The notes beneath the pieces were generated by a model, which did no database searches, was not told the DNA's origin, and saw only the letters and a list, made by a program, of their open reading frames with translations. From the NCBI GenBank assembly GCA_949317995.1, contig OX439051.1, positions 45,821,250 through 45,885,249 of the forward strand: 64,000 nt of DNA, given 5' to 3'. Source of the DNA: Acholoe squamosa (Eukaryota > Annelida > Polychaeta > Phyllodocida > Polynoidae). The position numbers and the translations under genes were made by a program. This document shows positions 16,718 through 61,724 of the stretch, piece after piece (positions within the stretch are counted from its first letter, which is position 1; each line of letters begins with the position of its first letter).

Positions 16718-16759
16718 TCAGCCTCGGGTCCTCAGTCTAATAAGGCCCTCAGTCATATA
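16718..16759. repeat. Left part of the CCCTCAG minisatellite, split by a transposon
   Basis: Units CTCAGTCTAATAAGGCC and CTCAGTCATATA match the array that resumes at 17948, so the transposon at 16760-17947 sits inside this array. Confidence 0.7.
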
Positions 16760-17947
16760 GGGTAGATTAACCTAAAGACGACCACATGCCTAGAGTCGAC
16801 CACCTGTCACCTTGTTTTTCTCACTTTCACATGTAGTGCATTGGTCTTAAACCCTAATATTATTGAAAAAGAGGTGTTATAGTACCCCATAGAATGATGT
16901 CCTGGAATAGATGAAGTAATTGTCTCTGCATGATAATACACTAAAGTTCCAATGTTTGAATGGTTTTTACCAAGACTAGCTGGTCATTTCATCAGAATTC
17001 TCCAACTTTGGTTCAATAATTGAAGATCACAAGTGCTCACATATACAACATTTTGACTCTAGGCATAGATAAATATCTTTGCTAAATGATAGCGTAAGGA
17101 AAATTGCAGAAATGTTAAATACTTTCTGTATAGGACCTTATTTCCTAGAACATACCAATTTCACCTTGAGATGACCACCATTTCACATTGAGTCAACCAT
17201 TCCTTATACACCTATTTGTGCATTTAATTGAATAGAAACCATTGATTATGTAGGATTACATCACAAGATTCATGGCCAGCATAGTTTGGGATAGAAATCT
17301 TCACTGGATTATGCTCTGATGCATACATTTCAATCTTAACTGTACTGCTACTGTTATTATTATGTAGAGGAACTATTTGGTACTGAGGGTGTGATGATAA
17401 AGTTAAGGAATGGATTATCATAGTCCATATTGAAGGTCTATTAACGTACATTAAAAACAAAGCCTCTAAAATGCAGTGTTGGAAATACCACTTCTATTTT
17501 GATGAGATTTACAATATCCATGGCCATAAAGTTGCCTCCAATTTCCATTCTAATTGAGTCACTATAAAAACATCTTATGATACAACAGTTTTTAATTACA
17601 TCATTTTACTGCATATCTATAAAAGACACTTATTATTTTTTTCAAATGATAGTTTGATGAACATAGCCCCATTAAAATAGTAGTTATCAAGTGGTCATCT
17701 CAAGGTGCAAGGTGGTCATCTCAAGGTGAAACTAGACTAACTGAGATGGTCTTAGAAATGATGAAAAACAATAGATAAACTTTACACATGGATTTGAGAA
17801 AGGTAATTGGTCCAAAAGCCGAAATAATTATCTTTCACTTAGTACCTTGGGGAACCCTAAGGACCTATTAGACTCAAAGATATTAGCTACTACTTTTCCC
17901 TTATTGAAAATCTGCACAGGAACAGTCGTCTTTAGGTTAATCTACAC
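16760..17947 (+). mobile_element. DNA transposon with TA target site, copy 1
   Basis: Ends GGGTAGATTAACCTAAAGAC and its inverse (GTCTTTAGGTTAATCTACAC), flanked by TA on both sides. The interior is about 1.2 kb without a transposase. A second copy, inverted, lies at 33658-35188. The TA duplication fits the Tc1/mariner group or another TA-targeting superfamily. Confidence 0.75.
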
Positions 17948-19390
17948 TAAGGTCCCCACTCTTGTAAGGCCCTCAGTCTTATCAGGTTCTCGGTCTTATA
18001 AGGCCCTCAGTTGTATAAGGTCCTCGATCTTATTAGGCCCTCAGCCATATAAGGTCCTCGGACTTATGAAGTCCTTGGTCTTATAAGGCCCTCAGGCATC
18101 TTATTAGGCCCTCAGCCTTATAAAGTCCTCCGTCTTATAAGGCCCTTAGTCTTATAAAGCCCTCAGTCTTATAAGGTCTGTATAAGGTCCTCTGTATTAT
18201 AAGGTCCTCGGTATTATAAGGTCCTCGGTATTATAAGGTCCTCGGTATTATAAGGTCCTCTGTATTATAAGGTCCTAGGTATTATAAGGTCCTCGGCATT
18301 ATAAGGTCCTCTGTTTTATAAGGTCCTAGGTATTATAAGGTCCTAGGTATTATAAGGTCCTCGGTATTATAAGGCCCTCAGTATTATAAGGACCTCGGTC
18401 TTATAATTCCCTAAGACTAGTGCCCTCATTTTAAAGCCATTTGTATTGGGCCCTCAGCATAAAGCCCCCAGCCTGACGCCCTACGCTTCAAGTCCACAAT
18501 TAAGGCACCACCTTTATTCTTATACACAAAGTGTTCAGACAATCATCACAAGGCTTGCAGCATAAAACCCTGTCCACAATGCCCTCAGCCCAATTCCCAA
18601 CGCCCTTTGCACATCACCATTGATCAGCTTGAAGCCCTGCCCTGAGTATACCGAAACCTCACATAGAACCATTTCAGACCCTTAGTGCAGCTTATAGGAC
18701 CACCCTGAGCTCCTGGTGCCCAGGTTAAGGAATCGCAACCCTTTCAAGCCCCAGGTGTGACTAAGATAATTTTCCCAATGTTAGGATGCAGTTTATACCT
18801 GCATGCGGCTTATACACTGGGTTTTATGTTAATACCATACTCATGCACAAATCCCTCCACATTCATCGTAAGGCTCTCAGCATCAAGCCATTACACTCTT
18901 AAGTGATAGCAGGAAGGCTCTTTAGCTAATGCCCTTAGCCTAAGGCCCTCAGCCTTATGCTATCAGCCTCAAGCACACCACCCTCAGATTTCACCCATAG
19001 TATCAAGCTCTGACTTCTGGAATAAAGCCATCTGCAATCAAGCCCTTAACTAAGGCAGCTGGAAAGCCCTCAGTCCAGAGCTGAAATTTACACTCTTCAG
19101 CCTGAAGCCCTCATGCTAAAATATAAAATCTTCTACACAAAGCACTCTACATTACATTTGAGTTCTCTCCGATGCCCTCAGCCTTGAGCCCTCTTCATGA
19201 GCCCATATATAAAACATAACCTCTCAGTCTATGCCCCTCCATGATGGTGCTCTTAGTCTAGAAATTTAGTGTCAATGATTCATTATTATCATCTTCAGGC
19301 CTAAGTCACTATATTCTATGGTCCAGAACTTAGGGGCCCTAAACTTGAGGCCCAATCTATTCAGTAAGCAGCTTCACGAATAAAACCCTT
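17948..19390. repeat. Minisatellite of TATAAGGTCCTCGG-type units, decaying to the right
   Basis: From 17948 to about 18420 there are some 25 units of 16-18 bp (ATAAGGTCCTCGGTATT and variants). From 18420 to about 19330 the same core (GCCCTCAGCCT) recurs at irregular spacing, as in an old array that is no longer homogenised. ORFs here are repeat artefacts. Confidence 0.85.
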
Positions 19391-31961: not shown

Positions 31962-33657
31962 AGATGCCGTATAATATCGATGTGAAGCTAAATGCCAAAA
32001 TAATAATTTGGTGAATTCAGGTGCCAACCAATGGTCTTTAGATAAAGTATGCATTCCGGAGGACTCCTCACAAAATCCTGCAATTAAATGTTGCAAATGC
32101 AGCTAAATAACAGCCTGAATCGGTGGCCAATAATTGATCCCTTTACCACAACGACAGGTCTACCAAATCTCTTTTCTTTTTTTAATATAAGCTGATCATA
32201 CTGTTCAGTCGTGCGTCACTGTCTATGATCACCCAAAATCGTAATGGAGCATCTTATGAAATATCCTCCAGATGTCTTTTATAAACTATTATATGAAACC
32301 TGGTATCAGTAGATGACCAGTGATGACCACTATATTCCACCGGTAGCCATTAGATGGAGCTTGATTTCACATGATGAAATCTATTGGCTGTTTGGTCAAG
32401 CCCAATGCCATCAGATGCCTCTTGAGAATTATTTGTTAAAGCTCATTATAAAAAGAAGTGGTAATGCCATCTAATTTCTCATACCTCATTAGTATGGTGG
32501 GTAAATGGCCCAGGTAAAGGGTTAGAGTCACAATTGCCGATCGTCTATAGGAATGATGAGATATTGGTTAACTGTCACTTCGTTACCATTACTCCCCTTG
32601 GGTTTAACCCTTTAAAGGCAGCTGAAGCATTCATGCACCATGCCCATTTGTCGTCATGAATGCAACCCTGGTGAGTAACTCGAGTAACTCACCAGGACTG
32701 CAATCGTGCATCGTGACGATTCTACGGGCTTCAAAAACCCATAGAAGATCAGCATAATGCGCTAAAGGTTGAGAGCCACACAAAACCTCAAGTTTTGTGT
32801 ACTTTTCCAGAAATTATATATGAATGGACAATGGCGACTTACTCGTAAATGCTGCATTCTTGCATAATTTCATCACGTGATATTGCATCAAAGAACCATG
32901 TAGTATTGACTGAACCGCTGACTACTTCATTGGAGCATCATGATGAGAAAACAACATGACCCTGAAGGCATCTTGCGGCCTTTAGAGGGTTAACAATGTC
33001 AAGAGAGGGTTAACTAACTGATACCTATTTACCAGCACTCCACTACTCCTTAAGGACGCTGACCCATGAAGGGGACTAAATTGATCACTTCGTTATACTA
33101 ACATCACTGGGGCAATCAGCAATAATCTTTATTATCGCTCACGTCGATATAAACACACATTTCCCTGCTATTACACACGGGAGCCGACTCCTGCGCCTTA
33201 CCCAGAGATCAATGCCTTACCCAATACCACCCAGGGCAGCCAAATAGGTTGGACCAAGAATTCAGCCATGGAACAGCTATACTGAATGTTAGCGAGTGGT
33301 CACCACTTCATAGTTTTGTTGGATTTTCGCCGTGGACTTGAAGAGGGGCTTCACTTGCTGTTCTTTGTCTTTCTGCTTTCTTCTCCCCCCCCTCCCTTCT
33401 CTCATAAAACATTATAAGTATACCCCCCCCAGAAATCCCTAGATTTAAATTGAATAGCAACACTGTTTCTTTTTCTTAGAATAAGTGAAATATTTTTGGT
33501 CTACTTCAAAGGAGATCCACTTTATTTTCTGTCCCCAAAGAGGGGTCATTATTCGTTATGCCCCGCTCCCCTCAAAATAAGGTCCACTTATTCTACCTAT
33601 TATTGAAAGATGGCCACTCCCTTTATAACCCTCCAAAAAAAAGATGATAAATACATA
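31962..33657. other. Non-coding DNA with a member of the GCAGTCCTGG hairpin family at 32625-32720
   Basis: CCTGGTGAGTAACTCG and CGAGTAACTCACCAGG (about 32667-32697) form a near-perfect hairpin between two ATGAATGCA/TGCAATCGTGCA arms. The rest shows minisatellite remnants to about 32440 and no gene. Confidence 0.5.
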
Positions 33658-35188
33658 GGGTAGATTAACCTAAAGACGACTGTTCCTGTGCAGGTTTTCA
33701 ATAAGGGAAATGTAGTAGCTAATATCTTTGAGTCTAATAGGTCCTTAGGGTTCCCCAAGGTACTAAGTGAAAGACAATTGTTTGGGCTTTTGGACCAATT
33801 ACCTTTCTCAAATCCATGTGTAAAGTTTATCTATTGTTTTTCATCATTTCTAAGACCATCTCAGTTAGTCTAGTTTCACCTTGAGATGACCACCTTGCAT
33901 CTTGAGCTGACCACTTGATAACTACTATTTTAATGGGGCTATGTTCATCAAACTATCATTTGAAAAAAAAAGAATAAGTGTCTTTTTCTAGATATGCAGT
34001 AAAATGACGTAATTACAACTATTGCATCATAAGAAAATGTATGTTTTTATAGTGACTCAATTAGAATGGAAATTGGAGGTAACTTTATGGTCATAAGAGA
34101 CGTATGTTTTTATAATGACTCAATTAGAATGGAAATTGGAGGCAACTTTATGGCCATGGATATTGTAAATTTCATCAAAATAGAAGTGGTATTTCCAACC
34201 CTGCATTATAGAGCCTTTGTTTTTAATGTACTTTAATAGACCTTCAATATGGACTATAATAATCCATTCCTTAACATTATCATCACACTCTCAGTATCAA
34301 ATAGTTCCTCTACATAGTAATAACAGTACCAGTACAGTTAAGATTGAAATGTATTTATCTCAAGTTGAATACGAGAGCCCCATAGGCTTAACCAAGAAAC
34401 TCTGTATCACACCCCACAGTGTGATAACCCTTCCCCATATCACACTCCCTGGGAAAACATCCAAAACGGTCAAATAACTGATGATAAAACCATTTCTAAT
34501 GCCAAATAAATCGAATTTTGAACATATCTGACTAAATTAACTTGAGATAAATACAAAGGAGCACTTGAATTGGTCAGCACTGAGGGTTATCACACTCGGC
34601 TTCTCCTCGTGTGATAACCCTCAGTGCTGACCAATTCTCGTGCACCTTTGTCTATGTATCAGTAATCCAGTGAAGATTTCTATCCCAAACTATGCTGGCC
34701 ATGAATCTTGTGATGTAAACCTACATAATCAATGGTTTCTATTCAATTAAATGCACAAATAGGTGTATAAGGAGTGGCTGACTCAATGTGAAATGGTGGT
34801 CATCTCAAGGTGAAATTGGTATGTTCTAGGAAACATTTCTGCAATTTTCCTTATGCTATCATTTAGCAAAGATATTTATCTATGCCTAGAGTGAAAATGT
34901 TGTATATGTGAGCACTTGTCATCTTCAAATTATCGAACCATATGTGGAGAATTCTGATGAAATGACCAGCTAGTCATGGTAAAAAACATTCATACATGGG
35001 AACTTAAGTGTATTATCATGCAGTGACAATTACTTCATATATTCCAGGATATCATTCTATGGGGTACTATAACACCTCTATTTCAATAATATTAGGGTTT
35101 AAGACCATGCACTACATGTGAAAGTGAGAAAAACAAGGTGACAGGTGGTCGACTCTAGGTTTGTGGTTGTCTTTAGGTTAATCTACCC
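33658..35188 (-). mobile_element. DNA transposon with TA target site, copy 2 (inverted relative to copy 1)
   Basis: Same ends as 16760-17947 (GGGTAGATTAACCTAAAGAC; right GGTTAATCTACCC), flanked by TA. The interior matches copy 1 in reverse throughout, except for an insertion at about 34353-34655 and a short local duplication near 34030-34150. No transposase. Confidence 0.8.
34353..34655. mobile_element. Hairpin-bearing insertion nested in transposon copy 2
   Basis: Absent from copy 1. ATTTATCTCAAGTT (34353-34366) is mirrored by AACTTGAGATAAAT (34539-34552). Next to it a hairpin spans 34551-34655, with about 45 nt arms and identical inner arms of about 29 bp (GAATTGGTCAGCACTGAGGG on the left) around a loop near 34596-34608. 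Confidence 0.75.
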
Positions 35189-36512
<1,324 letters not shown>

Positions 36513-41045: not shown

Positions 41046-42554
41046 CTACTTCACAGCAAAAAGAAATATATTCTAGCGAGATGATATTCAAACGGCTTTT
41101 AAAAAGGGTGATTTTTAGATTCAGGTGCATGATGGGAGTGATGGTTGTCCAAGCTTTTAAGAAATCCGTATATAAGCTTATAACTCCTTATAGTTGAACC
41201 CACAGAAGAACTATACATGGACCCCGCCCCCTCCCTCCTCTCTATGCAATTATTGGACTACATGGTCCTATTATATATGACGTGACATAATCCATGAGAG
41301 CTGCTCCTAATTATTCCTCTAGAGAAATAGTTATGGCATACATAAGCTATTTCCGGTACAGTATTTGGCAAAATGATTCTGGTGAATGCAACTGGATTAT
41401 CCATATTTTATTATTGCACCTTTGTAACTGGTTGTCCTGAAAATGGAATAAACCTTACACTATGTGGTCCTTTAAAGTTTTTTCTTCTTCTTTTCAGGAA
41501 GGAATCCTGTTTGAAAATCTATTTTAATATATTCGAGCTCACTTCAGCATGAACTTGATAATGATTTAATTGCAATATGTGTAGAAAAAGGACAGACAGA
41601 TATATATGTGTAGAAAAGGACAGGCAGATATGTGTAGAAAAGGGACAGACAAATATGTGTAGAAAAAGGACAGGCAGATATGTGTAAAAGAAGGACAGGC
41701 AGATATGTGTAGAAAAAGGACAGTCAGATATGTGTAGAAAAAAGGCAGTTTTACCTATGTAAACTCTACCACAGTGCAAAATGGTACATGTATTACACTC
41801 TAGACATATCGACTGATGAGTATATGTAAATAAGTACTAGGTTCAAATGTATGTATCATTACACTCTATCTAATGAACCATGACATTTTCACACACACCC
41901 AGTAAATGGATACCATAATGCTGCGAATAACACCAAACACCTACCAACAATAATACATGTGGTGATAAACTTAACCTGGACATAATATCTTTCCACTATA
42001 TAAACAGTTCTAATGTTGGAGAATGCTCCTGTTTCATAATAGATGTAGGGTTAAAAAGTAAAAGTACCTGTGCATAGATAATAATTAAGGAGGTTATGTT
42101 TTGGTTGGTGTTCTGGTACTAAAACCATTGTGAATATACCGGCATATCTCATATTTTATAGTAAGCCTTTAATGGGTGTATGATTCATCCAGGTTTGTGG
42201 GGCGTTGTCGTCATGACGCAGTAATGCAATGCCGGCTGATACACTTGCCAGCAATGCATTTATGTATCATGCTGACCCTTTGTATGGTTATCGACCACAT
42301 AGAGGTGGCGCTATCTATTCAACAGGGGTGGAACCAGGACTGCTTGGGAACGGGGGGAGATCTGAGGTTTTCATGTTTTAGGCTCAAATCGTTTATTTGG
42401 CCTTTTTTCTGGCATACTAAATTAGAAATTAGGGTAATATCTACCCTCTGAACACACAAAACATAATTTCTGCCCCCCCCCTTTGCCCCGTTTTTTACTT
42501 TTCCTCCCCCTCTTCTCTTTCTCCCTATTGATGTTTTTGTTTTCTTCTGTATGG
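41046..42554. repeat. Non-coding DNA with a 25 bp tandem repeat at 41575-41750
   Basis: About seven units of GATATGTGTAGAAAAAGGAC plus AGGCA. At 42185-42290 there is a member of the dispersed GCATGATGCA/CCTGG hairpin family. No gene. Confidence 0.7.
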
Positions 42555-42775
42555 TGTAGTGGTCAGCGGAAAATGTCATGGAGAAACCGGGACTCGAACC
42601 CAGGACCCTCCAACTTCGAAGCGGAAGCTCTACCCCTGAGCTACTTCCCCTGGCCTGACATTCTCTACCTTCCAACTACCCTGGATCGGTATGTTATACA
42701 TAGGGGGAGTGACACAATCAAGTGAACAGTCCCTCTGAAGGCTCTGCGCACCCGACGGGGGAACGAACCCCTACA
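42555..42775 (-). repeat. LTR of the TRIM (3' LTR in element sense)
   Basis: 221 bp; differs from its partner by a few substitutions and a small indel near 42751 (CGCACCCGACGGGGG against CGCATGGGGG). Confidence 0.8.
42580..42650 (-). other. tRNA-Ala-like sequence in TRIM LTR, copy 1
   Basis: It folds into the cloverleaf positions. Acceptor GGGGAAG/TTTCTCC (7 pairs including G-U), D stem GCTC/GAGC, T stem CTGGG/CCCGG with loop TTCGAGT, short variable region, discriminator A. A box TAGCTCAGGGG; B box GGTTCGAGTCC perfect. The anticodon arm is weak and position 34-36 would read CGA. Overall it is closest to tRNA-Ala as I recall it. Confidence 0.7.
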
Positions 42776-43014
42776 CTTGTCCCAACCAGCTTTGACCGTA
42801 TCTGCCCAGAACTGGTCCTCCAGTCCAGTCTGAACAGTACCACATGTACCCGTACTGAGTCACACACAACCCGTATAGGCTTCTGTTCCCAGGAACGGCT
42901 GTGTGTGCCACCTGTTTCCAAGTTCCTCAGCACTAGCAGGTCGAAGCACTTGTCTATACCATACCGGCCCAGGTACCTAGCTCTATAAGATCCCCCTTGT
43001 GAGGCGGGACCACT

Positions 43015-43028
43015 CGGTTTCTCCACCA
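43015..43028 (-). other. Primer-binding site of the TRIM
   Basis: The minus strand reads TGGTGGAGAAACCG. It pairs over 14 nt with the 3' end of the tRNA-like sequence in the LTR once CCA is added (CGGTTTCTCCA plus CCA). Confidence 0.7.
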
Positions 43029-43029
43029 C

Positions 43030-43245
43030 TGCAGTGGTCAGCGGAAAATGTCATGGAGAAACCGGGACTCGAACCCAGGACCCTCCAACTTCGAAGCGGA
43101 AGCTCTACCCCTGAGCTATTTCCCCTGGCCTGACATTCTCTACCTTCCAACTACCCTAGATCGGTATGGTATACATAGGGGGAGTGACACAATCAAGTGA
43201 ACAGTCCCTCTGAAGGCTCTGCGCATGGGGGAACGAACACCTACA
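43030..43245 (-). repeat. LTR of the TRIM (5' LTR in element sense)
   Basis: 216 bp direct repeat of 42555-42775; carries the second tRNA-like copy. Confidence 0.8.
43055..43125 (-). other. tRNA-Ala-like sequence in TRIM LTR, copy 2
   Basis: Same as 42580-42650, except that acceptor base 7 is A rather than G (GGGGAAA). This turns a G-U pair into A-U and so keeps the stem. Confidence 0.7.
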
Positions 43246-43376
43246 ATGGTTAGGGGGCTAGGATCCACCAATGATTTAGCATTGCAGCTATGATTTAGTA
43301 GACTTGTCATGACGGAATCTATGCACCATAATGACAAATGGCCATAATGCATTAAAAATCTATGCAGTCTAAATCA

Positions 43377-49633: not shown

Positions 49634-50997
49634 ATTCAGTCTCAAGAGGGTGGGGTTGATGTAGGGTATGGCATGGAAATATCTATCCCAGCAGGTGCTT
49701 TCTATATCTAGCAATTATATTCAAAGTGGATATTGAAATTGACAACAGCTTGTTTGCGTTCAATATCATTTATCTTGCTTGATATGGAATCAGGTAAAAT
49801 CAATATAATTTCATATCAAGGTACATGTATTTCATGGTAGGTATAGAAATGATGACCATTCTGTTAGGCCTAAAGGAAATTGTTTGTTTCAGGTAACCCG
49901 ACCCTACCTAGCAATACAAACCCACCCTACCTTTTCTTATTTAGATAAGTAGATATAATATGTCTCTGCGTGAGTTTTACCCTATTGTCATGTGCAAGTC
50001 ACAGGCATGAATTCCTGCTTATCCCAACGGTGAGGAAAATAAAACATTTTTTTAAAATCCGATCTACAGGTGCCCTACCTATTTTTTTCAGCATGTTACC
50101 TGAAACACACACCATTTAGCCTTTGTATGTATACACCTGTCAGAAAATGACATTAACAACAGCCATGTGCATAATATTCTACCTGGGCTTTAATATTCCA
50201 TGGAGATCAATGGTTTATTTACATAATATCTACATGGACATGAAAACTAGTTTCCATAATAAGTTCCCATTGATTATACATACAGCATGTTTAACCAGCA
50301 AGGTTTGGAGACAGGATTGCAACCTGCTTTAAGTACCCATCAAAATAATTATCATTAACTCAACTGAAAGATATATTATGTGATGATAACATTCAAATAG
50401 ATTACAAACTTGAATGATTATTACCTGATAGGGGGGCTATGTATGTTAGATTCTGTAAATATGCCTGTATATATGTTCGATTCTTTTGCGTTTGTGTTTT
50501 GATAATATACGTGTTCGTGATTCTGGTTTTTCTTCTTCTTTTTTTCTTTTTGCTCTGTTGAATCAATCAGCACAACTAGAAATTAACAAACTAAGGTCAA
50601 TATTGATATTGAGAGGCACTGAACCAATGTTGAAGAGACAATGTTGTATCTATGGAGGCAACATTGCTAATTGCCCATATTATATATAATTATATTATCG
50701 AATACTCTTGTCAATAAGGGAATGTCCTTGTGTAAGTACAACTGATTTACAATGTGAATTTTTTTTCTAAACCCTCTTTAAGGTAAGACAAAAATTATGA
50801 AATAATATGAATAACTTTCAGATACAGAATGTCAGGGAGAGAATCAGCACCATTTCGTTTGAAGGGAGTATTCCACTATCCGAACTTCCAACCAATTAAT
50901 GGTCACCAACTGATTTTTGTCAGCAGATACATAACATAGGCATTACATGAGCTAATGGCAGTTGCTAAAAACAGGAAAAATAGGCAAAGCTACTCAC
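49634..50997. mobile_element. Intron and intergenic DNA with a MITE at 49885-50107
   Basis: 49885 TGTTTCAGGTAAC and 50095-50107 GTTACCTGAAACA are mirror ends. It is the reverse-oriented relative of 37305-37557. From 50997 leftward this is the first intron of the minus-strand gene; no further exon is recognised. Confidence 0.6.
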
Positions 50998-52157
50998 TTG
51001 AACTGGAGATTGTCATTGGAGTTACAGCCAAAGAAGGGCACAGAATACGTAATCATCCACGACTTGGACCACGCACAGTCAAAAAAGGGTCTGGTCCACA
51101 TTCCCTCATGCCGGGTGCTCATAAAGAGGCTGGCCTTGGCCCGGTCACCCGGGGACTTGGCCTTTAGGTCTTTGCAAGACTTCTGGTGGTCCCAGAGAAT
51201 CTTGGAGAAGTTGCGGCTGCGTAGTTTGACAAACCACTCGTAACCCTGAGTGTCGTTGGCAGCGCAACGCCCTCGTGTGGCAGTTGCCATGTCCTTGACA
51301 TGCACCCTGCCTGTTACTTTGTCCTTGTACATGTAAGGACAGAAGTCTCTGCTTTTGTATTGCGCTTTGTCAAAAGCTATGGCACAACCAAAGATTTTTT
51401 CATCGTTTTCGACCATGGCGCGCACTAGTGAATAGTAGAAGTCCTCATTGTAGAGGGTCTTGCTAGCTGAACTGGTGTCCCAGATGCGGAAAAGGTTGTT
51501 GAGCACATTGGCCAGCTTGATGGCACTGTTTTCCTGCTGCATGAACCGCTCATACGAATCATTGAGTAGCTCATAGTCTTTGAGTAAGGGTGTATTGCCC
51601 GAGCAGTTCCTCTGGTTTTGCACCATCTCTATATGCTGCAGGACCGCAGACACAGGGTCCACACGGGCCAAATCCTGCAGAAATTTTGATTGGTCACTGT
51701 GTGCTGTCCTCCCTGATCCAGCGAACGGCGACGAGGATTGGGACGACCCGGAAGAGGAACTAGTATCAAGGTCACGTTTGGTGAGGAGTGCCCCCTGGTA
51801 GCGCCTGGAGGATTCAGGTTTAGTGTAATGGCGAACAGGATGAGCATGTTCGGGGTGTGGAAGAGCATCTTGAGATGCTCCGTGTAGAGATATAGAATGG
51901 AATGGCTCACGACCCCCTCCTATCAAGGTGCCCGCAGATGTTGCTTTCCGGGCTTCACGATCTCTTACCCCAAAGGTCCCTGAATCCACACTAACACCCC
52001 ATTGACCCCGACCAGCTCCACTATCTCCCCTATTGGAGTTTGGACCTTCTCCAGGATGGAAGCTTGTCCTCCAGGAGCCCAGGCCGCTGACAGTGTTAAA
52101 TTGATGTAATGACATCAAATAGAGTAAGGCCCTTAACAACGCAGCACCCAACTCCAT
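50998..52157 (-). CDS. First coding exon of a Cache-domain receptor, GPR158/GPR179 (mGlyR)-like
   Basis: Inferred role: the extracellular ligand-binding part of an orphan class C-type receptor at the plasma membrane. The exon has 386 codons plus two bases from ATG 52155-52157 (context CTAACCATGG, a good Kozak match) to a splice donor (AA then GTGAGT, GT at 50996-50997). Residues 1-25 look like a signal peptide (hydrophobic core LLRALLYLM), followed by a low-complexity Gly/Ser-rich stretch with a Ser run at 133-145. From about 205 to 385 there is a Cache-like fold pattern: YNEDFYYSLVRAMV (235-248), FCPYMYKDK (272-280), YEWFVKLRSRNFSK (306-319), MWTRPFFDC (353-361) and WMITYSVPFF (367-376). Conserved-looking Cys and three N-glycosylation sites (NCS 184, NDS 199, NFS 316) support secretion. 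The remaining exons (seven-helix part) are not in the window. Other Cache proteins are possible. Confidence 0.7.
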
Positions 52158-52260
52158 GGTTAGACTGTGTGGACAGGCCTGTGGCCTTGCTCCCTATATC
52201 TGGGTCTGGTGAGCTGCTCTATATAATGTATTACACAGTGAGCAGTGGCTCTGGAGTACC
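52158..52260 (-). promoter_or_regulatory. Possible TATA-type core promoter close to the receptor ATG
   Basis: The minus strand reads TTATATAG at 52226-52219, about 60 bp before the ATG, with a CAGCTCACCAG stretch at initiator distance. It may instead be 5' UTR if transcription starts in the CpG-rich DNA near 55 kb. Confidence 0.3.
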
Positions 52261-60665: not shown

Positions 60666-60863
60666 GATCTTATTTGGATGGGGGCCTCCTGGGGCATTTG
60701 TGTGTAAACGTTAGATCCAGTTGTATTCTATAAGGTCCCTGAGTTTTTTGGCCTTCAGGGACTTTGGGTGGGCATGGATAAAGTCTACGACATGGATGGT
60801 CAGGTCCCTGTGTTTGTCATCTTTACCTCTATTAGAGCAGGAATTCAGGTGACACGCTACCTC
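60666..60863 (-). pseudogene. GIY-YIG endonuclease fragment of the Penelope-like element
   Basis: In the frame overlapping the RT stop, DLTIHVVDFIHAHPKSL and KKLRDLIEYNWI (to TAA 60711-60713) match the C-terminal helices of Penelope endonucleases. After a further shift, RLHTNAPGGPHPNK (60665-60710) matches the usual end. The N-terminal GIY and YIG strands are deleted. Confidence 0.65.
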
Positions 60864-61647
60864 ACTTTTGGAAAATTCCTTTCTGCTTATTTTGCCATAA
60901 TGGTCGGAAAATCTTGTTTTGATGGCATTTTGGTCTTCTATAGGACATTTTTAGTCCCTGACCATGAATTTGACTGGTGCTGCATGATTTACCAAGTAAA
61001 TCCCAGTTTCTTGTGGCTAATTTATGGATTTCATTGAACCCTGGGTTAAATGTGGTGACTAAGTAGTTACCCACATCTGGGTCTAGGGTGTTCTCTGGTT
61101 TTGGCACTAGTAGAGATTTTCTGTCAAGTTGACAGGCTCGATGAAAACTGTCTGCTATAAAGGCCGCTGGGTATCCACGTAGGACAAAATGTTTGCCCTG
61201 TTGGATACAGTGTTTTAGGAATTTCTGGTCATCTGAACATACACATCTTATTCTGAGAAATTGTCCATAGGGGATACCTTGAATGCTGTGTTGTGTGTGT
61301 GCTGACTGGAAATGTAGGTATGAGAAACTGTCTGTGGGTGTGGTGTACAGGTCAGTTTCTAATTTACCCTCAGTGTCTATGGAAACTGTAACATCTAAAA
61401 AATCCACTTTTGTAATGGAAGTTACCACTGTGAATTTTATTGTAGGATGTACCTTGTTTAAATAGAGCGTGAATTCATCTAATTCGGACTGGCTGTGGGG
61501 CCAGATGAAAAAGATGTCGTCTATAAATCTCACCCACATGAGTGGTTGACGTTTATAGGTGTATACCTTGGACTCTTCAAATTGATATACAGCTAAAAGC
61601 TTTGGTCTTCCCAGAAAGAAGTTACCATAGAGCATATCCCCGATCAT
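60862..61647 (-). pseudogene. Penelope-type reverse transcriptase, C-terminal part
   Basis: When intact this copies element RNA. Seen: the catalytic FIDD box in WVRFIDDIFFIWPHS, then HPTIKF, VDFLDVTV, LETDLYTTPTDSFSYLHF and GIPYGQFLRIRCVCS, in the order usual for Penelope-like RTs. After these comes a Cys/Lys-rich connector. The first palm motifs are missing, because the frame starts at a Met (61645-61647) within the LYGNFF-type block; upstream is a 54 bp duplication and then unrelated DNA. The frame ends at 60862 and the endonuclease continues in another frame. The FIDD aspartates are kept. Confidence 0.8.
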
Positions 61648-61724
61648 GAGATTTCACCCATTTTCAAGAAAGAAGTTACCATAGAGCATATCCCCAAAGA
61701 ATCATGAGATTTCACCCATTTTCA
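61614..61724. repeat. 54 bp tandem duplication at the Penelope 5' boundary
   Basis: AAGTTACCATAGAGCATATC and GAGATTTCACCCATTTTCAA occur twice at a 54 bp offset, with a short insertion (AAAGAATC) in the second unit. Confidence 0.9.

What the first reader, a model, noticed from the sequence alone, without database searches (positions are those of the whole stretch)
42555..43245. A TRIM whose LTRs encode a tRNA-like RNA that matches its own primer-binding site
Seen: a 691 bp element with TG...CA LTRs, ATGG duplication and PBS one base after the LTR. Each LTR holds a 71 nt tRNA-Ala-like sequence with a perfect B box. The PBS (TGGTGGAGAAACCG) is complementary over 14 nt to that tRNA-like 3' end plus CCA, and by my recollection fits it better than ordinary tRNA-Ala, whose end differs at two positions. 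An 11 bp inverted repeat (43015-43025 and 43054-43064, 28 nt apart) would also let the RNA fold back on itself. Known: Cassandra TRIMs carry 5S rRNA in their LTRs, and Tf1 self-primes with an 11 nt segment. Inference: this element supplies its own pol III promoter and perhaps its own primer.
Basis: partly seen in the sequence, partly recalled or inferred. Interest (0 to 1): 0.87.

Follow-up and report, generated by a model that had tools for sequence, protein, structure and literature searches.

The report
Retrotransposon carrying its own tRNA primer
A tiny jumping element in an animal genome carries in its end repeats a small tRNA-like gene whose finished product would fit exactly the spot where copying of the element must be started, and in a sister family both halves of this lock and key have changed together, which suggests that the element brings its own primer instead of borrowing one from the cell.

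Summary
42555-43245 is a 691-bp gene-free LTR element (sense = minus strand) with a 4-bp duplication, a 72-nt tRNA-like gene in each LTR, and a PBS that pairs 14/14 with that tRNA-like 3' end plus CCA. TRIMs with tRNA-like LTRs are published as Helenus (Kojima 2024), but that paper reports no complementarity between tRNA-like sequence and PBS, so the match is new. The host genome (held, unnamed) supports it. The 20 host tRNA-Ala genes read (of 215) fit only 12-13/14. All 62 genomic tRNA-type ends of the fitting kind that I read (of 2386) lie in such LTRs. A sister family with nearly the same backbone has another tRNA cassette, ending CGGTGTCTCCA, and the PBS TGGTGGAGACACCG (37 of 39 copies), as written down before those copies were read. 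The PBS usually begins with TGG, which needs a CCA tail that the LTR does not encode, so a processed tRNA fits better than fold-back. TTTT follows the tRNA within 4-7 nt in most copies. Best reading: a Helenus variant that encodes its own primer tRNA. Limits: the covariation is one site, a host tRNA fits each family at 13/14, there are no RNA data, and an exhaustive host-tRNA query stayed unanswered.

The parts
42555..43245 (-). whole element (TRIM, Helenus-type), 691 bp, gene-free
   Evidence: direct reading; family of many copies in the host genome (3125 candidates, 40 scored)
43246..43249 (.). target site duplication ATGG (flank at the sense 5' side)
   Evidence: 19 of 30 genomic copies have an exact 4-bp duplication, 5 differ at one base, 6 none
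42551..42554 (.). target site duplication ATGG (flank at the sense 3' side)
43030..43245 (-). 5' LTR (216 bp)
42555..42776 (-). 3' LTR (222 bp)
43054..43125 (-). tRNA-like gene in the 5' LTR, Ala-like body, 3' end CGGTTTCTCCA
   Evidence: ARAGORN, Rfam RF00005 51.9 bits, cloverleaf with one non-standard pair in the anticodon stem
42579..42650 (-). tRNA-like gene in the 3' LTR
   Evidence: ARAGORN, Rfam 48.6 bits
43065..43075 (-). B box GGTTCGAGTCC of the 5' LTR tRNA-like gene
   Evidence: direct reading; match to the pol III B-box consensus is recalled
43045..43048 (-). TTTT, minimal pol III terminator 5 nt after the tRNA-like 3' end (5' LTR)
   Evidence: 92 of 98 T-runs of 4 or more in 47 copies lie within 12 nt after the tRNA-like end
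42570..42573 (-). TTTT after the tRNA-like 3' end (3' LTR)
43131..43137 (-). leader AATGTCA, complementary to trailer TGACATT (43047-43053); would extend the acceptor stem
   Evidence: direct reading; leader/trailer forms of copies listed
43015..43028 (-). primer-binding site TGGTGGAGAAACCG, one base after the 5' LTR; 14/14 to tRNA-like 3' end + CCA
42777..42794 (-). purine-rich stretch before the 3' LTR, likely PPT (weak)
   Evidence: direct reading; the same place reads GAAGCTGGTTGGGAGGAG in some other families

Best explanation
The element is a Helenus-type TRIM whose LTR carries a complete small tRNA gene (A box, B box, cloverleaf, TTTT stop). RNA polymerase III makes a short pre-tRNA from it; RNase P, RNase Z and the CCA enzyme trim and tail it; and this LTR-encoded tRNA, not a cellular one, anneals to the element's PBS and primes reverse transcription by a borrowed enzyme. 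Because the plus-strand PBS is copied from the primer tRNA in each cycle, the PBS follows the sequence of the LTR-encoded tRNA. Shown here: anatomy, exact pairing, the sister family in which end and PBS changed together, no matching host tRNA among those read. Inferred: pol III transcription, processing, CCA tailing, priming, the helper enzyme.
For: 14/14 pairing, and the PBS begins with TGG in 26 of 30 window-family copies, 20 of 21 5' LTRs of other families and 39 of 39 family B copies; TGG pairs with a CCA absent from the LTR DNA. PBS bases opposite nt 66 and 67 are A in 30 of 30 copies, whereas host tRNA-Ala AGC (G66) and TGC/CGC (C66, mostly A67) would give AACCCG or ATGCCG; genome-wide only 9 PBSs of the exact form CTACAN-TGGTGGAGAN[not A]CCG exist, 3 of them with the AGC-tRNA sequence. 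Family B: tRNA-like end CGGTGTCTCCA in 36 of 39 copies and PBS TGGTGGAGACACCG in 37 of 39, 14/14 in 34 of 39; this PBS was written down before the copies were fetched. Family B (L121) and A (L045, the closest of four compared) share 122/125 aligned bases of the LTR part before the tRNA and 184/194 of the interior, but 56/70 of the tRNA cassette (29, 37 and 3 gap positions). Ends that fit the PBS lie in LTR sequence in 62 of 62 cases read for the A type (57 with TTTT and LTR end, 5 in altered or damaged LTRs) and 20 of 20 for the B type. LTR pairs of 30 copies differ by 0-7.7%, so the family has been active recently.
Against: No RNA evidence of any kind. The covariation between families is a single site (nt 67 / PBS position 9); by my own estimate chance gives it about 1 in 42 if one PBS change is placed at random. 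tRNA cassette, LTR end and PBS lie within about 110 nt, so one recombination could have moved a cassette and its PBS together. A host tRNA-Ala fits each family at 13/14, with the only mismatch at nt 66: AGC genes for A, and one CGC gene (L117, end CGGCGTCTCCA) for B; they might prime with one mismatch. Single copies disagree: 16 of 30 window-family copies have less than 14/14 (down to 10), L126 has PBS TGGTGGAGAACCCG with a 5' LTR end CGGTCTCTTCA, and L122-L125 and L127-L129 have changed PBSs with A-type ends. Within family A the tRNA end and PBS decay at about the rate of the rest, so single copies show no constraint. Two A-type copies (L178, L179) carry the B-type base at nt 67; the one followed by a PBS (L179) keeps the A-type base there. 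A query that would have listed host tRNA-Ala genes with the family A end did not complete, and only 20 of 215 tRNA-Ala genes were read.
Confidence: 0.66

Rival explanations
1. Host tRNA-Ala is the primer, tolerating one mismatch at nt 66 (AGC for family A, a CGC variant for family B); the LTR tRNA-like sequence is only a pol III promoter that derives from an Ala tRNA, and its exact fit is a by-product of common origin.
For: tRNA-Ala genes are numerous in the host (215 by pattern). AGC genes pair with the A-type PBS at 13/14; one CGC gene read (L117) pairs with the B-type PBS at 13/14. Published Helenus families are assigned cellular tRNA primers (PMC10886601).
Against: The PBS base opposite nt 66 is A, not C, in 30 of 30 copies and only 3 PBSs of the searched form carry the AGC-tRNA sequence. 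The PBS is copied from the primer, so such a primer should have rewritten it. Both families fit their own LTR tRNA at this site too.
Confidence: 0.13
2. Fold-back self-priming as in Tf1: the tRNA-like 3' strand in the 5' LTR pairs in cis with the PBS 28 nt downstream, the RNA is cut there (RNase Z could do it) and primes itself.
For: 11-bp cis pairing plus 6 bp more; z = -5.0 for 43015-43064.
Against: Cis pairing does not need the TGG that opens the usual PBS of each family read; the LTR has other bases after A73 (TGAC, GGAC, AAGA, GAGA). Cutting would remove the 5' end of the genomic RNA that is needed for strand transfer.
Confidence: 0.07
3. An unread cellular tRNA or tRNA-like RNA of this species has the exact end and primes; the LTR tRNA is a captured copy of it and acts only as promoter.
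For: Only a sample of host tRNA genes was read (20 of 215 tRNA-Ala, no other isotypes); the exhaustive query did not complete (seven tries, the last). One contiguous segment from tRNA to PBS could carry both.
Against: All 62 A-type ends (of 2386) and 20 B-type ends (of 21) read lie in LTR sequence; two different unseen tRNAs would be needed, one per family. The 100 tRNA-Ala anticodon arms listed (of 215) fall into three sequence types, each represented among the 20 genes read.
Confidence: 0.1

Closest known systems
Helenus (Kojima 2024, PMC10886601; TRIMs with tRNA-like sequence in the LTR)
   Same: Size under 1 kb, gene-free, tRNA-like sequence with A and B boxes in both LTRs, PBS next to the 5' LTR, 4-bp duplications as in animal Helenus.
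   Different: [quoted passage not shown] here the two fit at 14/14 in two families with different ends. The animal primers named in its text are Lys, His, Leu, Trp, Arg, Ile, Pro, Glu, Ser (its supplements were not seen); this PBS is of Ala type.
Cassandra (plant TRIMs with 5S rRNA in the LTR)
   Same: pol III promoter and terminator inside the LTR of a gene-free TRIM.
   Different: 5S, not tRNA; PBS given as TGGTATCAGAGC (passage in PMC7215508), with nothing there that ties it to the LTR's own RNA.
Tf1 self-priming (recalled)
   Same: Primer would come from the element itself.
   Different: Tf1 uses the 5' end of its own mRNA in cis; here the PBS fits a processed, CCA-tailed tRNA.
Engineered tRNA-like primer for a PBS-impaired MLV vector (Lund 1997; seen only as a title in the reference list of PMC3185771)
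   Same: By its title, a supplied tRNA-like primer can complement an impaired PBS.
   Different: Artificial, supplied in trans; here a natural element would carry such a gene.

Membership tests
Helenus | gene-free LTR element under about 1 kb (TRIM) | tested here: met
   691 bp; no Pfam match for the longest frame lying wholly inside, 110 aa; other families 652-992 bp
Helenus | tRNA-like sequence with A and B box motifs in the LTR | tested here: met
   TAGCTC and GGTTC in both LTRs
Helenus | PBS after the 5' LTR | tested here: met
Helenus | polypurine tract before the 3' LTR | tested here: inconclusive
   GGTTGGGACAAG here, GGTTGGGAGGAG in some other families: purine-rich but interrupted
Helenus | 4-bp target site duplication (animal Helenus) | tested here: met
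   19 of 30 exact, 5 with one difference, 6 none
Helenus | mobilised by Gypsy elements (inferred in the paper for animals) | not tested
   no search for an autonomous partner was made
Helenus | reported trait: tRNA-like sequence not complementary to the PBS | tested here: not met
   14/14 here and in family B; a reported trait, not a defining one
Cassandra | 5S rRNA sequence in the LTR | tested here: not met
   Rfam scan of the window at gathering scores finds only the two tRNAs
Tf1-type self-priming | primer is the 5' part of the element's own RNA in cis | not testable with these tools
   cis pairing is possible but the PBS also includes TGG for CCA

The most novel reading that the evidence does not exclude
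One LTR tRNA gene makes both RNAs of the life cycle through its minimal TTTT stop: when pol III stops there, the RNA folds as a tRNA, is tailed with CCA and becomes the primer; when it reads through, it continues to the TTTT of the 3' LTR and becomes the genomic RNA, in which the PBS pairs in cis with the tRNA 3' strand and so keeps that RNA from being cut as a tRNA. Primer identity is thus heritable in the element, and primer switching happens by swapping the tRNA cassette.
Probability: 0.3. Interest if true: 0.92.

Novelty: new variant of a known kind. Interest (0 to 1): 0.85.

Why it matters
By textbook knowledge LTR retroelements depend on a cellular tRNA (or a piece of their own mRNA, as in Tf1) to start reverse transcription. 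A natural element that encodes a tRNA gene as its own primer would be a further way to solve the priming problem, would explain why an element would keep a tRNA-like gene in its LTR, and would make primer switching directly testable, because related families in one genome differ in the tRNA cassette and in the PBS that goes with it. It also warns that many predicted tRNA genes in such genomes are retrotransposon parts.

Tried and rejected
Chance pairing: rejected. Search of viral contigs with the tRNA end (0 hits) and with the PBS (20 contigs holding a 16-base match, taken as chance and not analysed): nothing. Depletion of TTTT as proof of full-length pol III transcription: AAAA is just as rare (2 AAAA runs, 6 TTTT runs outside the trailers in 47 copies) and shuffles do not reject it, so no such claim. 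Selection on single copies: tRNA end and PBS decay like the rest. MFE folding of the tRNA-like RNA alone does not prefer the cloverleaf (cloverleaf -19.7 and -21.6, MFE -26.2 and -28.1 kcal/mol) and is no better than shuffles; the tRNA call rests on ARAGORN and Rfam. Host identity: of 10 homologues of a GPR158-like frame the only one named by a source is from Capitella, 39% identical, so the host stays 'an animal'. Other deviating PBSs: 8 of the 9 places have an A-type tRNA end in at least one LTR (L126 and L129 only in the 3' LTR) and look like decay; the ninth led to family B. PBS position 8 changed: 11 places, taken as decay, not fetched except L141 and L157. A first regex for an alignment of leaders found nothing. 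Autonomous partner: not searched.

Never answered, so not known: Rfam tRNA search of the genome (asked once), total counts of A-type and B-type PBSs (CTACANTGGTGGAGAAACCG, CTACANTGGTGGAGABACCG), PBSs with another base at position 4 (CTACANTGGTHNNNNNNCCG), host tRNA-Ala genes with the A-type end.

Full report
What is there. On the minus strand, 43245 to 42555 is a complete small LTR element: TG...CA LTRs of 216 and 222 bp, a 4-bp duplication (ATGG on the plus strand), a PBS one base inside the 5' LTR and a weak purine tract before the 3' LTR. The longest frame lying wholly inside (110 aa) has no Pfam match. Each LTR holds a 72-nt sequence that ARAGORN and Rfam call a tRNA, with one non-standard pair in the anticodon stem. 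The body is Ala-like, with G3:U70 and A73; the anticodon reads CGA, so isotype and anticodon disagree, as Kojima reports for many Helenus (PMC10886601; parts 1-5 of 6 read; supplements not seen).

The pairing. The PBS TGGTGGAGAAACCG pairs at 14 of 14 with the tRNA-like 3' end CGGTTTCTCCA plus CCA. The CCA is not in the DNA: after A73 the LTR reads TGACATTTT. TGG begins the PBS in 26 of 30 copies of the family, in 20 of 21 5' LTRs of other families (GG and at most 3 changes were required there) and in 39 of 39 family B copies, while the base between LTR end and TGG varies (G, C or T). So what the PBS fits is a processed, CCA-tailed tRNA.

The family. The host genome is held (1.48 Gb, unnamed, an animal). 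The first search had 3125 candidates and scored 40; 30 copies were read: 19 of 30 with an exact 4-bp duplication, PBS exact in 19 of 30; 5' LTR end against PBS 14/14 in 14 of 30, 13/14 in 11, 10-12/14 in 5. LTR pairs differ by 0 to 7.7%, so it is a young family; tRNA end and PBS decay like other parts, so single copies carry no sign of constraint.

Other families of the same kind. A pattern for tRNA-type 3' ends that fit the PBS, with the window family's next base excluded, has 2386 matches and none in the reversed control. I read 62 distinct ones (loci L051-L100; all from contig C1, where the list began): 57 are followed by TTTT and an LTR end, and the other 5 lie in altered, damaged or rearranged LTRs; 21 are 5' LTRs followed by a PBS of this type, 15 exact and 6 with one or two changes. 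LTR-flanked elements measure 652-992 bp. TTTT follows within 14 nt in 59 of 62, 4 to 7 nt after the tRNA in the copies listed; 92 of 98 T-runs of four or more in 47 copies lie there.

Host tRNAs. A pattern for the tRNA-Ala anticodon arm finds 215 genes (control 0). Twenty were read, all tRNA-Ala by ARAGORN. Ten AGC genes end CGGGTTCTCCA, a 13/14 fit to the A-type PBS (one with a further change, 12/14). Seven TGC and two CGC genes end CGGCATCTCCA and one CGC gene (L117) CGGCGTCTCCA, a 12/14 fit. Against the B-type PBS these give 12/14, 12/14 and, for L117, 13/14. The LTR tRNAs have U66, no host gene read has, and the PBS follows the LTR tRNA there. Because the plus-strand PBS is copied from the primer in each cycle (textbook knowledge, recalled), a family primed by AGC tRNA should carry C opposite nt 66; 30 of 30 copies carry A, and genome-wide only 9 PBSs of the searched form differ there.

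The sister family. One of those 9 led to family B (L121). Its tRNA-like ends CGGTGTCTCCA; from that I wrote down the PBS to be expected, TGGTGGAGACACCG, although L121 itself reads TGGTGGAGACCCCG (sent in the same turn as the search, which lists places but no letters). All 39 other scored copies (3569 candidates, 40 scored) were fetched: end exact in 36 of 39, PBS exactly as expected in 37 of 39, 14/14 in 34 of 39, 13/14 in 5. The query contained both parts, so the copies were chosen for likeness to L121, but the base at which L121 departs was not given by the query. Compared with L045, the closest of four A copies, L121 has 122/125 identical aligned bases in the LTR before the tRNA (29 gap positions, mostly an insertion in B) and 184/194 in the interior (37 gap positions), but 56/70 in the tRNA cassette (for the window copy 120/125, 168/193 and 57/70): the backbone is shared, and tRNA and PBS changed together. 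The usual PBSs of A and B differ at one position, the one opposite nt 67. ARAGORN calls the B cassette tRNA-Ala with TGC anticodon in the 8 loci tested. A search for B-type ends with another next base found 21 places; 20 were read, all LTR sequence or LTR fragments, none a free tRNA gene; five of them are 5' LTRs with the B-type PBS (L172, L176, L182, L185 exact, L184 with one change), and L185 is a further lineage with another LTR and tRNA body. Two A-type copies with the B base at nt 67 (L178, L179) are told as evidence against strict coupling; L179, the one with a PBS, keeps the A-type base there, as decay would give. L126 is another copy whose 5' LTR end and PBS disagree.

How it most likely works. 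The LTR holds a small tRNA gene with its own stop. Pol III makes a pre-tRNA, cellular enzymes finish it with CCA, and it primes the element's reverse transcription by a helper's enzyme; the PBS is rewritten from this primer each time, and a swapped cassette brings its own PBS after it. Shown: anatomy, pairing, joint change, absence of a fitting host tRNA among those read. Inferred: all RNA steps. Whether the genomic RNA is a pol II transcript or a read-through of the same pol III unit is open. TTTT in the LTR would split it much as described for Cassandra, whose transcription starts in the 5S of one LTR and ends in that of the other (as told in PMC10886601).

How sure. The joint change between families is one site; with one PBS change placed at random it would fit by chance about once in 42 (my estimate). 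The departure from the host tRNAs at nt 66 is a second, separate fit of similar weight. One contiguous segment of about 110 nt could carry cassette and PBS together, which would explain their linkage but not why each pair fits. A host tRNA-Ala fits each family at 13/14. The exhaustive host query stayed unanswered (last try).

What is known. TRIMs with tRNA-like LTRs are Helenus; the author asked whether the tRNA-like sequence could be the primer and reports that no complementarity with the PBS could be found (section 3.6). A later mention in a meeting report concerns transcription only (passages of PMC12859917). I saw parts 1-2 of 5 of the bivalve TRIM paper PMC6934838, which could not identify a canonical PBS unambiguously; passages of PMC7215508 on Cassandra and of PMC3185771. 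Eight word searches of the open-access library on TRIMs, Helenus, self-priming and supplied tRNA primers showed no retrotransposon said to encode its own tRNA primer in titles, abstracts listed or the passages read; subscription papers and preprints are not held. I therefore file it as a new variant of Helenus, with a priming mode that would be new if confirmed.

Noticed in passing
L069 1324-1760: Element in which the 5' LTR's tRNA-like 3' end is joined directly to the purine tract and 3' LTR (interior and LTR end missing, junction exactly at the tRNA's last A), and whose 3' LTR carries a different tRNA-like piece with CGGTTTCCCTA: may be an abnormal reverse-transcription product.
   Followed up: partly
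window 43131-43137 and 43047-43053; other families: Leader and trailer of the tRNA-like gene are complementary (AATGTCA/TGACATT); in other families AACGTC mostly goes with GACGTT and AATGTC with GACATT or GACGTT, with a few exceptions, which hints at a kept helix around the pre-tRNA.
   Followed up: partly
host contig C12 about 51.451-51.477 Mb (places): Long tandem array of tRNA-Ala(AGC) genes on one strand, spaced mostly about 290 and 390 bp.
   Followed up: no
host contig C1 about 3.004-3.026 Mb (L059-L061): LTRs of this kind locked in tandem units exactly 7071 bp apart (3004547, 3011618, 3018689).
   Followed up: no
L094, L171, L177: Head-to-head or palindromic joins of LTR pieces of these TRIMs.
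   Followed up: no
window 16757-17949 and 33656-35191: Two long inverted copies, 93-98% complementary in blocks, about 16-18 kb apart.
   Followed up: no
window 50997-52193 (minus): 399-aa open frame with a PDC sensor domain (above its Pfam cut-off) and part of a GPR158/179 extracellular domain (24.7 bits, below its cut-off of 28.1): probably an exon of a GPR158-like receptor.
   Followed up: partly
window 60862-61653 (minus): Open frame with an RFIDDIFFIW motif that looks (recalled) like a Penelope-type reverse transcriptase; no Pfam match.
   Followed up: no
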